Assembly: GCF_000024405.1 (NCBI RefSeq)
Contig: NC_013517.1
Span: 620,001 to 684,000 of the forward strand
Reading direction: 5' to 3'
Length of the DNA stretch: 64,000 nucleotides
DNA from: Sebaldella termitidis ATCC 33386
GTDB lineage: Bacteria; Fusobacteriota; Fusobacteriia; Fusobacteriales; Leptotrichiaceae
Below are positions 1,163 to 4,640 of this stretch, one piece after another; position 1 is the stretch's first letter; every line of letters starts with the position of its first letter. Position numbers and translations under genes: made by a program. The notes beneath the pieces were generated by a model. It saw only the letters and a program-made list of their open reading frames with translations, ran no database searches and was not told the DNA's origin.

Positions 1163-1191
1163 TTGACTGAATTACTTTTTTATAGTAAAAT
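1163..1191 (+). promoter_or_regulatory. Sigma-70-type promoter for ROK-PHP operon
   Basis: TTGACT (1163-1168), 17-base spacer, TAAAAT (1186-1191), about 60 bases before the ROK-like start codon. Confidence 0.65.
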
Positions 1192-1195
1192 AAAA

Positions 1196-1226
1196 TATAC
1201 TTTTAAAAGATTATTTTAAAAGTATA
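1196..1226 (+). promoter_or_regulatory. 13-bp perfect inverted repeat in the leader (putative operator)
   Basis: TATACTTTTAAAA (1196-1208) is an exact reverse complement of TTTTAAAAGTATA (1214-1226) with a five-base loop. It sits at the predicted transcription start of the regulator gene, the place expected for an autoregulatory operator; no T-tract follows, so it is not a typical terminator. Confidence 0.5.
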
Positions 1227-1250
1227 TTTAAAAAGTTTACGAGGTATAAG

Positions 1251-2288
1251 ATGGATAAAACAACTAAAATAACAGGAAAACCCAAATTTATGAAAGAACT
1301 GAATATTTCGGAAATAAAAAGGGCTATTCTGAAAAATCCTATGATAACAAGATCAAATATAGCATCTTTGACAAATATCAGCCTTACGACAGTGGGGAAT
1401 ATTCTGACAGAGCTGATAAGAAATGAAGATATATTTACAGGTGGATATGAAGAGTCAAGCGGAGGAAGAAAGGCGGAAAGATATTATTTTAATAAGGAAA
1501 AGTATCATAGTCTGTCATTTTGCATAGATAATAAAAGTATTAAATACATAATTTCGAATATTCTGAATGAAGAAACAGAGCATGGTGAACTGGAAGTAAA
1601 TGACAGAGCTGTTCGGGAAGTTATTACAGAGTTTACAGAATACACACTGAAACAAAAAGATATAAAAGCTATAGCTCTCGGAGTTCCCGGAATTGTAAAG
1701 GACAGCAGCTACTTAATCAAGGGACCGGACGGGGAATGGATAAAAAATGATATAGGGGAATTTCTCCGGAATAAATTCGGCATACCGGTAATTCTGGAAA
1801 ATGACCTGAATTCTACAGTATTAGGCTTTAGTATAAATTTTGCCGGTAAAAATAAAGATAAGGAACTGAAAAATCTGAGTTCTGTATATATAGATTTTTC
1901 AGATGACTGTACTGGTGCGGGAATTATCACAAATGGCGAAATTGTACGGGGGAAATATAATTTTGCCGGTGAATTTGGTTTTATTCCTATGGACGGGGGC
2001 AAAACATTAGACGATATTATAAATGATGAGTGTGGAAATGAAGAATATGTGGAAACTTTGGTAAAACTGATTCTGATAATAAATTATACAATAAATCCCG
2101 GTATTATTATTATGAGAGGAGAAAGATTCAGGGAAGAGCTTCATAATTTAGTGGTAGAAGAATGTAAAAAGCATATGCCGGAGGGAAGCTTTCCGGAAAT
2201 CATATTCAAAGAGCACAGCTTTGATGATTATTTCAGGGGGATAAGCAGTCTCGGAGCAGAGTTAATGCACAAAAATATAGGATTATAA
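1251..2288 (+). CDS. ROK-family-like transcriptional regulator (degenerate sugar domain)
   Basis: 345 residues. The N-terminal third is a MarR-like winged helix (ISEIKRAILKNP, then TRSNIASLTNISLTTVG as the likely recognition region, and a GGRKAERY wing), as in NagC/XylR repressors. The rest follows the ROK fold: GVPGIV, a LENDLNSTVLG segment and GEFGFIPMDGG. The cysteine/histidine zinc motif (CxCGxxGC) typical of ROK proteins is missing and the C-terminal half is poorly conserved, so it probably binds an effector rather than phosphorylating sugar. It is followed after 21 bases by a PHP phosphoesterase gene, suggesting one operon. A perfect inverted repeat lies in its leader. Effector and targets unknown. 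Confidence 0.75.
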   Translation: MDKTTKITGKPKFMKELNISEIKRAILKNPMITRSNIASLTNISLTTVGNILTELIRNEDIFTGGYEESSGGRKAERYYFNKEKYHSLSFCIDNKSIKYIISNILNEETEHGELEVNDRAVREVITEFTEYTLKQKDIKAIALGVPGIVKDSSYLIKGPDGEWIKNDIGEFLRNKFGIPVILENDLNSTVLGFSINFAGKNKDKELKNLSSVYIDFSDDCTGAGIITNGEIVRGKYNFAGEFGFIPMDGGKTLDDIINDECGNEEYVETLVKLILIINYTINPGIIIMRGERFREELHNLVVEECKKHMPEGSFPEIIFKEHSFDDYFRGISSLGAELMHKNIGL

Positions 2289-2309
2289 ATAAAAAACGGA
2301 GGGAAAGAA

Positions 2310-3206
2310 ATGATAAAAAATATTATTGATCTTCATATGCATAGCGGGTATAGCGATGATGGAGAATTTAAGCCGTCTGTACTGGTGCAGATGTGTAAAG
2401 ATGCAGGGCTGAAATATATAGCTGTAGCAGACCATAATTCGGTTAAGGGGGTGGAAGAAGCTGTAAATAAAGGAGAGGAGCTGGGAGTAAAAGTAATTAC
2501 AGCAATAGAAATAGACTGTACATATGAAGGAGTGAATCTTCATGTGCTTGGATATTATATCGACTATAACCTGAAAGAATTCGGAGAACTGGAAGAAAAT
2601 ATACTGGAACAGGAGAAAAAAGCAAGTCCTGAGAGATTAAGACTTGTGGAAGAAACAGGAATATATGTTAATCGTGATAAGCTTAGCAAAATTGCAAAAA
2701 ATGGTATTATAATAGGTGAGGATATAGCCGAGGCATCTGTTTATGAGCCTGAAAATAAAGAGAATCCTCTTATAAAGCCGTATCTTGAGGGCGGTTCCAG
2801 AAGTGACAACCCTTATGTGAATTTTTACTGGGATATATGTGCACAGGGAAAGCCGGCATATGTACCGGTTCATTTTATCTCTTTGAAGGAAGCGGTAGAT
2901 TTGATAAATAAAGCCGGAGGTATACCGATTCTGGCACATCCGGGTAATAATATACATGAGGATAAAAAGCTTCTTGACGGAATTTTGGACTCTGGGGTAA
3001 AGGGAATGGAAGTATACAGCAGTTATCACAGCAGTGAGCAGATTGAATTTTATAGAAATGAAGCAGAAAGCAGAAACTGTCTGATGACATGCGGAAGTGA
3101 TTTTCACGGTAAGATTAAGCCGGCTATAGAATTGGGCGGCTGTAGATGTGACGGGAATACTGAAAAGAAGATAATAGAAAATTTTATTTTGAATATAAAA
3201 AAATAA
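2310..3206 (+). CDS. PHP-domain metal-dependent phosphoesterase
   Basis: 298 residues, cytosolic. The PHP-fold metal ligands are visible in order: DLHMHSGYSDDG at residues 7-18, VADHNS near 38, LAHPGNN near residue 210 and CGSDFHG near residue 265. The family (YciV/TrpH relatives) hydrolyses phosphate esters such as 3',5'-nucleoside bisphosphates or short RNA 5' ends, or histidinol-phosphate-type substrates. A GGAGGG site lies 8 bases before the start. Downstream partner of the ROK-like regulator; the pair may act on a small metabolite sensed by the regulator (inference). Confidence 0.8.
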   Translation: MIKNIIDLHMHSGYSDDGEFKPSVLVQMCKDAGLKYIAVADHNSVKGVEEAVNKGEELGVKVITAIEIDCTYEGVNLHVLGYYIDYNLKEFGELEENILEQEKKASPERLRLVEETGIYVNRDKLSKIAKNGIIIGEDIAEASVYEPENKENPLIKPYLEGGSRSDNPYVNFYWDICAQGKPAYVPVHFISLKEAVDLINKAGGIPILAHPGNNIHEDKKLLDGILDSGVKGMEVYSSYHSSEQIEFYRNEAESRNCLMTCGSDFHGKIKPAIELGGCRCDGNTEKKIIENFILNIKK

Positions 3207-3253
3207 TACAGATAACACGGATATTATCTGATTAAAAATGGACAGTCTGCTGT

Positions 3254-3298
3254 GCCGGTTTTCTATAATTGAAAGATTTTAGAAAACCGGCAGTTTTT
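3254..3298 (+). terminator. Rho-independent terminator after PHP gene
   Basis: GCCGGTTTTCTA (3254-3265) pairs with TAGAAAACCGGC (3280-3291), followed by a T run. Confidence 0.85.
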
Positions 3299-3328
3299 CA
3301 AAATGCATATTTAGATGAAAAAATTTAA

Positions 3329-3357
3329 TCGACAAAAGCTTTTATTTAATGTATAAT
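3329..3357 (+). promoter_or_regulatory. Orphan promoter
   Basis: TCGACA (3329-3334), 17-base spacer, TATAAT (3352-3357). No open reading frame with a ribosome site follows before the terminator at 3502-3537. Confidence 0.5.
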
Positions 3358-3363
3358 AATTAA

Positions 3364-3537
3364 ACACACTAAATAATAATGGTTTTTATCTGATATTATC
3401 CGGTGTATTAAGTTGTTTGATTAATTGAATTATAGAGGAGTTAGCAGATATTAATAAAGCTCTTTTAGAGTTTTATATATACTCAATGGTTTTAGTCAAA
3501 AAAAACAGAGCATGCATGTTTACATACTCTGTTTTTC
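3364..3537 (+). ncRNA. Candidate small RNA between an orphan promoter and a terminator
   Basis: About 174 bases run from the predicted start of the promoter at 3329-3357 to the terminator at 3502-3537. I find no convincing coding frame in it; a GAGGAG near 3435 is not followed by ATG, GTG or TTG at a usable distance. The RNA contains a further short hairpin around CTCTTTTAGAG near 3461. It does not resemble a known RNA family I can name. Alternative: the promoter is a chance match and the region is ordinary spacer. Confidence 0.35.
3502..3537. terminator. Bidirectional rho-independent terminator
   Basis: AAAACAGAG (3502-3510) pairs with CTCTGTTTT (3527-3535), with T runs on either strand. 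It can end the leftward aldo/keto reductase transcript and the candidate rightward small RNA. Confidence 0.8.
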
Positions 3538-3598
3538 TATTATTGTAAAATAATATATTCTGTTTATTTTTAGTCAGATATCAGATAATAAAATTTCT

Positions 3599-4594
3599 TC
3601 AGCCTTTCAGAATTTTTTCTATAGCTTCCAGCTCTTCGACAGTAAACTCAAGATTATCCAATGCATGAACATTTTCTATGATCTGGCTGGACTTACTGGC
3701 ACCTATTAGTGCAGATGTTACTTTTCCACCCCGTAAAGTCCACGCAAGAGACATTTGAGCAAGGCTTTGATTTCGTTGTTTTGCTATTTTATCAAGTTTT
3801 TTTACTTTTTCTATTTTATCAGCAGTTATGCTATCGGAATTCAGTGAAATTTCCCACGCTTTCCCGGCTCTTGAGTCTTCGGGAACACCGTTTATATATT
3901 TATTTGTAAGAAGTCCCTGTGCGAGCGGACAGAAAGCTATACTGCCTATTCCTTTTTCTGTAAGTACATCCTGAAGTCCGTCTTCTATCCATCTTTCAAA
4001 CATGGAATATCTGGGCTGATGTATAAGACATTTTATTCCCAGCTCTTTAAGTATTCTGTCTGCTTCCCTTGTCTGTTCTGCGGTGTAGTTGGAAATACCC
4101 ACATACAGAGCTTTACCCTGACGTACTATCTGTGCAAGAGCCTCCATAGTCTCTTCAAGAGGAGTATCAGGATCAAATCTGTGTGAATAAAATATATCTA
4201 CATAATCCAGTCCCATTCTTTTCAGACTCTGATCAAGACTTGAAATCAGATATTTTTTTGAGCCCCAGTCTCCATATGGTCCAGGCCACATTGTATAACC
4301 GGCTTTTGAAGAAATAATAAGCTCGTCACGATACGGCTTCAGGTCATCAGCGAGCATTTTTCCAAAATTCTCTTCTGCGGATCCCGGAATAGGACCGTAG
4401 TTATTGGCAAGATCAAAGTGGGTGATTCCCAGATCAAATGCAGTTCTTATCATTTCACGCATATTTTCATATTTATCCATGGTACCGAAATTATGCCAAA
4501 GCCCTAAAGAAATAGCAGGCAGTTTTAATCCGCTTCTTCCGCATCTGTTATATTTCATGGAAGCATATCTTTTTTCATCAGCTAAGTAAAGCAT
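3599..4594 (-). CDS. Aldo/keto reductase, YghZ/Gpr-like
   Basis: 331-residue NADPH-dependent oxidoreductase of the AKR superfamily (TIM barrel). Closest to the L-glyceraldehyde-3-phosphate reductase type: GRSGLKLPAISLGLWHNFG near the start, then the catalytic Asp/Tyr in FDLANNYGP, catalytic Lys in SSKAGY, and HRFDPDTPLEETM carrying the conserved His. The C-terminal GASKSSQI segment is the NADP phosphate site. The start at 4594 has GGAG nine bases upstream; the slightly longer versions overlap that site. Single-gene unit with an inverted repeat over its -10 region and a terminator behind it. Substrate uncertain. Confidence 0.85.
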   Translation of the reverse strand: MLYLADEKRYASMKYNRCGRSGLKLPAISLGLWHNFGTMDKYENMREMIRTAFDLGITHFDLANNYGPIPGSAEENFGKMLADDLKPYRDELIISSKAGYTMWPGPYGDWGSKKYLISSLDQSLKRMGLDYVDIFYSHRFDPDTPLEETMEALAQIVRQGKALYVGISNYTAEQTREADRILKELGIKCLIHQPRYSMFERWIEDGLQDVLTEKGIGSIAFCPLAQGLLTNKYINGVPEDSRAGKAWEISLNSDSITADKIEKVKKLDKIAKQRNQSLAQMSLAWTLRGGKVTSALIGASKSSQIIENVHALDNLEFTVEELEAIEKILKG

Positions 4595-4640
4595 TACATT
4601 CATCTCCATTCAGTAACATAATATTTCAGCTGCTGTCTAA

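What the first reader, a model, noticed from the sequence alone, without database searches (positions are those of the whole stretch)
3329..3537. Candidate small RNA from an orphan promoter to a terminator
A TCGACA-17-TATAAT promoter is followed, with no usable reading frame, by a strong terminator about 180 bases on. A stand-alone non-coding transcript of about 174 bases is the simplest reading.
Basis: partly seen in the sequence, partly recalled or inferred. Interest (0 to 1): 0.5.

Follow-up and report, generated by a model that had tools for sequence, protein, structure and literature searches.

The report
Conserved small RNA gene in Sebaldella
A short stretch between two metabolic genes of a termite-gut bacterium has a promoter, a structured non-coding body and a terminator that are kept in two related genomes, so it is probably an ordinary small regulatory RNA whose target is not yet known.

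Summary
The window matches the Sebaldella termitidis type-strain genome in size (4,486,650 bases). The locus occurs, in the same place, in two of the three other genus genomes held. Against the more distant one the promoter keeps 38 of 42 positions and the terminator 86%, while the flanks keep 30-48% and the RNA's middle 57%. A small hairpin is kept with two double-sided changes and no break, but with three sequences shuffles do not make this significant. No Rfam family reaches its cut-off; the genus's 6S candidate is elsewhere. Among 92 other genomes of the order one weak model match passed 1e-3, a terminator. Corrections: the terminator is two-way, shared with the convergent aldo/keto reductase gene and stronger on that strand; predicted lengths differ (173, 232, 202 nt). 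Best reading: a genus-restricted small RNA in bacteria without detectable Hfq, probably acting by base pairing through a conserved linker; target unknown. New member of a known kind; interest modest.

The parts
3253..3292 (+). Hairpin that probably ends the upstream ROK-PHP transcript, isolating the RNA gene
   Evidence: 17-nt arms 94% complementary; 36 nt before the -35 box; 68% identity in G002
3316..3357 (+). Promoter: A/T-rich upstream stretch, TCGACA (3329-3334), 17-nt spacer, TATAAT (3352-3357)
   Evidence: 38 of 42 positions kept in G002; pattern TTTAATCGACAAAAGCNTTNATTTNATGTATAAT once each in G000, G002, G003 and not in G001, up to 3 mismatches allowed
3364..3536 (+). Predicted small RNA, about 173 nt (start inferred from the -10 box)
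   Evidence: no kept reading frame
3381..3449 (+). Poorly conserved, length-variable middle (whole RNA 59 nt longer in G003, 29 nt longer in G002)
   Evidence: 57% identity; lengths; alignment
3456..3474 (+). Small hairpin, 7 pairs kept in all three sequences; two of them changed on both sides in G002
   Evidence: also in the single-sequence folds
3474..3500 (+). Conserved linker, candidate base-pairing region (ATATACTCAAT, two bases, TTTTAGTCAA)
   Evidence: 23 of 27 kept in G002
3501..3536 (.). Two-way terminator hairpin shared by the RNA (+) and the aldo/keto reductase gene (-)
   Evidence: 86% identity in G002
2310..3206 (+). Upstream gene: PHP-domain phosphoesterase
   Evidence: PF02811 E 1.2e-13; best NCBIfam 3',5'-nucleoside bisphosphate phosphatase, 133 bits, below its cut-off of 400
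3599..4609 (-). Convergent gene: aldo/keto reductase, L-glyceraldehyde 3-phosphate reductase subfamily
   Evidence: PF00248 E 3.9e-69; NF007388 463.4 bits, cut-off 448

Best explanation
A stand-alone small non-coding RNA gene of the genus Sebaldella. Shown by sequence comparison: a sigma-70-type promoter, a 3' domain (small hairpin, conserved linker, terminator hairpin) and a non-coding body, kept at the same place in three genomes. Inferred: RNA polymerase starts near 3364 and stops at about 3537, giving an RNA of about 173 nt. Inferred with less support: the conserved linker pairs with one or more mRNAs and changes their translation or stability, without Hfq, of which no match was found in the genus.
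For: Same locus between the same genes in G002 and G003. Promoter 38 of 42, linker 23 of 27 and terminator 86% identical to G002, against 14 of 46 for 3207-3252, 39% for 3293-3315, 57% for the middle, 30 of 62 for 3537-3598, and 59-71% at third codon positions of five nearby genes. The promoter is as conserved as three other intergenic regions nearby that should hold gene promoters (79-91%). Nearly all of the linker (3474-3497) lies beyond the T run of the opposite gene's terminator, so that gene's 3' end does not explain its conservation. The hairpin at 3456-3474 is kept with two double-sided and two one-sided changes and no break in a sequence-only alignment; slid versions of the structure pair at 27-64% of cells against 96.8%. 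Frames are not kept between species. No Rfam family at its cut-off; below the cut-offs, 11 low hits of mixed kinds in 3200-3620; the 6S candidate is elsewhere. No Hfq match in 4 of 4 genus genomes, two of them incomplete; F. nucleatum is stated to lack Hfq and ProQ yet uses small RNAs (PMC11005410, passages read).
Against: No transcript data. Only three sequences; letter shuffles reach the observed pairing in 195 of 500 trials and the covariation score in 55 of 500. One terminator pair is not standard in 2 of 3 sequences. The terminator's T run is shorter on the RNA's strand in the window. The linker is predicted mostly paired in the window's own RNA (mean unpaired 0.21, below the RNA's mean of 0.36), though about half open in the relatives (0.53, 0.52). 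No target site conserved between genomes was found, and complements of the linker core are no commoner than the reversed control.
Confidence: 0.66

Rival explanations
1. Cis-acting partner of the aldo/keto reductase gene: the two convergent transcripts overlap over the shared terminator (and beyond it on read-through) and the RNA tunes the end or stability of the reductase mRNA.
For: Convergent arrangement and shared terminator in 3 of 3 genomes that carry the RNA; the fourth genus genome (G001) has no close reductase (best 35% identity), no promoter match and only a weak model match (E 0.006).
Against: The conserved linker lies almost wholly outside the predicted reductase mRNA; the 3' untranslated part of that mRNA (3537-3598) is poorly conserved (30 of 62). 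G001 is an 87% complete draft.
Confidence: 0.15
2. No RNA gene: the hairpin is only the reductase terminator and the promoter is a chance match.
For: The longer T run is on the minus strand in the window; promoter-like sites are common in this A/T-rich DNA.
Against: Promoter including its spacer and the linker are conserved above most of the surrounding non-coding DNA in G002.
Confidence: 0.12
3. The transcript encodes a small protein.
For: A short ATG frame (MVLVKKNRAC...) starts at 3486, and G002 shows a similar LVKKNRAC stretch.
Against: The ATG is ATA in G002, the frame shifts in G003 after a one-base deletion, no Shine-Dalgarno precedes it, and it runs through the terminator.
Confidence: 0.04
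4. A protein-binding or housekeeping RNA such as 6S rather than a base-pairing RNA.
For: Single-copy, own promoter, structured.
Against: A 6S candidate lies elsewhere in 4 of 4 genus genomes, though below the family cut-off; no Rfam match here at cut-off; the longest conserved piece outside the terminator is a linker, not a helix.
Confidence: 0.06

Closest known systems
FoxI and FoxJ small RNAs of Fusobacterium nucleatum (PMC11005410, passages seen)
   Same: Bacterium of the same phylum without Hfq; small RNA with its own conserved promoter; [quoted passage not shown]
   Different: Those have sigma-E promoters and a C-stretch seed; this has a sigma-70-type promoter and an A/U-rich linker with no C stretch; foxJ lies upstream of ylmH, this does not. 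Sequence membership was not tested, as no Fox sequence was fetched
6S RNA (Rfam RF00013)
   Same: Length class
   Different: The genus has its own 6S-like locus elsewhere; no RF00013 match here

Membership tests
Stand-alone trans-acting small RNA | Own promoter and terminator, no kept open frame | tested here: met
   by sequence and conservation only:
Stand-alone trans-acting small RNA | A discrete transcript is made | not testable with these tools
   no expression data held
Stand-alone trans-acting small RNA | Accessible conserved pairing region | tested here: inconclusive
   linker conserved 23 of 27; mean unpaired 0.21, 0.53, 0.52 in the three RNAs
Stand-alone trans-acting small RNA | Conserved complementary site in an mRNA | tested here: inconclusive
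   none found that is shared between genomes near a start codon, but the searches were narrow patterns and the place list was cut before any G000 row
6S RNA | Match to RF00013 | tested here: not met
   the genus's candidate is elsewhere
Small protein gene | Reading frame kept across relatives with a ribosome site | tested here: not met
sigma-E-dependent FoxI/FoxJ | sigma-E promoter | not tested
   the letters of the sigma-E motif were not retrieved
sigma-E-dependent FoxI/FoxJ | C-stretch seed | tested here: not met
   the RNA holds no run of C longer than two

The most novel reading that the evidence does not exclude
A genus-specific small RNA of a bacterium without Hfq that pairs through an 18-nt A/U-rich stretch with the ribosome site of a conjugation gene in a mobile element, so that the host chromosome restrains an incoming element (site in G003, locus L097).
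Probability: 0.04. Interest if true: 0.6.

Novelty: new member of a known kind. Interest (0 to 1): 0.3.

Why it matters
From general knowledge, small RNAs of this phylum have been studied mainly in Fusobacterium nucleatum. A conserved one in Sebaldella, where no Hfq was found, would be a concrete and easily probed example of how such RNAs work without the usual chaperone. It changes no general picture.

Tried and rejected
Chance promoter plus gene terminator: thought unlikely because promoter and linker are conserved above most surrounding non-coding DNA. Small protein: frame not kept. 6S and other Rfam families: none at cut-off. Mobile element: no match in plasmids or phages at 1e-5, none of the promoter pattern in viral contigs. 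Paralogues in the same genome: the best further hit (E 8e-5, L002) matches only the terminator and the bases just before it; of the other 32 hits only L004 and L005 were looked at. Relatives outside the genus: the family search gave weak hits (E 0.01-0.07) in G013, G043 (two places), G004 and G045. G043 and G045, of one other genus, align over hairpin, linker and terminator (32.8 and 30.7 bits), but the match starts inside a 50-codon frame, there is no TCGACA promoter before it, and the neighbours differ; I do not accept it as a relative, though a shared 3'-end form is not excluded. The order search gave G050, a terminator at the end of a coding frame. Alignments were printed for only 5 of the 19 matches.

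Targets. A resemblance at the 5' end of the gene at L005 (also L040, L041): the complementarity falls partly in that gene's likely promoter and is almost all A/T; dropped. Linker complement with up to 3 mismatches: only the locus itself, in 3 genomes. Core 11-mer: 24 places in 4 genomes against 25 for the reversed control; no orthologous group other than the RNA locus, and one unrelated pair within G001. GACTAAAANNATTGAG with 2 mismatches: fewer matches than the control in 4 of 4 genomes. One exact site lies just upstream of a ribosome site in G003, in an operon between VirD4-like and VirB11/TrbB-like genes (names recalled, from no call). Predicted duplex -23.4 kcal/mol with the G003 RNA; the best 1% of 3000 random window stretches begins at -14.4 and the single best reached -37.6, probably the RNA locus itself, not checked. 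But G000 has no relative of the neighbouring ATPase at 1e-20, and upstream of the G002 and G001 relatives the best duplexes with the G002 linker are only -10.1 and -13.3. A site shared by L102, L104 and L105 lies inside a coding frame. Papers: searches listed none on small RNAs of Sebaldella by title (open-access library only).

Full report
What it is in. The window is positions 620001-684000 of a 4,486,650-base genome in three contigs; that number is the genome size given for the Sebaldella termitidis type strain (PMC3035275, abstract read). The finding lies between a PHP-domain phosphoesterase gene (2310-3206, +) and an aldo/keto reductase gene (3599-4609, -).

The observation. TCGACA-17-TATAAT stands at 3329-3357 and is the only 11-of-12 promoter match in the first 9 kb, though 12 such sites occur in the window against 3.5 expected. 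A hairpin at 3253-3292 separates it from the upstream gene. The terminator at 3501-3536 is real but two-way: the T run is 5 on the plus strand and 8 on the minus strand.

Comparison. The genus has four genomes on hand including this one. Two others carry the locus: G003 (87-89% identical; apparently the Fusobacteriales MAG contig found, by equal contig length) and G002 (about 70%). The promoter pattern occurs once in each of these three and not in G001. Against G002 the promoter keeps 38 of 42 positions, the linker 3474-3500 keeps 23 of 27, the 3' domain before the terminator (3450-3500) 75% and the terminator 86%. The stretches around keep less: 3207-3252 14 of 46, the upstream gene's hairpin 68%, 3293-3315 39%, 3358-3380 70%, the middle of the RNA 57%, and 3537-3598 30 of 62. 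Third codon positions of five neighbouring genes are 59-71% identical. As a yardstick, three other intergenic regions nearby are 79-91% identical, so the promoter is conserved like ordinary upstream regions, not more.

The RNA. Predicted lengths are 173, 232 and 202 nt. All three fold better than most shuffles. The 3' domain has a small hairpin (3456-3474), a linker and the terminator. In an alignment made from sequence alone, the hairpin's seven pairs are kept in all three sequences with two double-sided and two one-sided changes; sliding the partners destroys much of the pairing, but letter shuffles with so few sequences do not distinguish it (195 of 500 as high). The linker is about half open in the two relatives and mostly paired in the window's own predicted fold. 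No reading frame is kept.

Spread. A covariance model of the 3' domain finds the three loci it was built from with E 4.3e-15 or better. Among 33 genomes of the family and 96 of the order (both sets include the genus; the larger search used stricter filters), all other matches are weak, E 6e-4 or worse, and several are the palindromic terminator read backwards. Those I looked at are terminators or 3' ends of other genes. Two genomes of one other genus show a hairpin-linker-terminator resemblance at E 0.03-0.07, in another setting and without the promoter; I leave it as a curiosity. No match in plasmids, phages or viral contigs.

Mechanism. No Hfq match was found in 4 of 4 genus genomes, while the same search finds it in 5 of 14 control genomes. 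A small RNA here would work without it, as in F. nucleatum (PMC11005410, passages). I take base pairing through the linker as the likeliest action, but no mRNA target conserved among the genomes was found. One striking 18-nt complement just before a ribosome site in G003 belongs to a conjugation-like operon whose ATPase has no relative in S. termitidis at 1e-20, and pattern searches gave no excess over control. It is a lead only. The cis rival (tuning of the reductase) stays open.

Verdict. It is a likely but ordinary, genus-restricted small RNA with unknown target.

Noticed in passing
window 3501-3536; L036 (minus strand): The terminator hairpin of G003 matches the reverse strand of the window's hairpin at 97% over 36 bases, as if the hairpin had been inverted in one lineage.
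   Followed up: partly
window 2271-2335: 65 bases identical to G002 across the ROK-PHP gene junction, the longest exact run in the first 7 kb; may hold a regulatory site.
   Followed up: no
window 1183-1234: 52 bases identical to G002 upstream of the ROK regulator gene, containing an inverted repeat (TACTTTTAAAAGATTATTTTAAAAGTA), a possible operator.
   Followed up: no
G000:C1:1243393-1243592 and loci L049-L052: 6S RNA candidates in all four genus genomes, just below the Rfam cut-off (37.7-45.4 bits, cut-off 46.4).
   Followed up: no
L097 (G003:C137): 18-nt complement of the RNA's linker immediately upstream of the ribosome site of a small gene in a conjugation-like operon.
   Followed up: partly
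L062 1501-1608; L064 1501-1607: In two genomes of another genus of the family, a 50-codon frame is followed by a hairpin, an A/T-rich linker and a terminator that resemble the 3' domain of this RNA (32.8 and 30.7 bits).
   Followed up: partly
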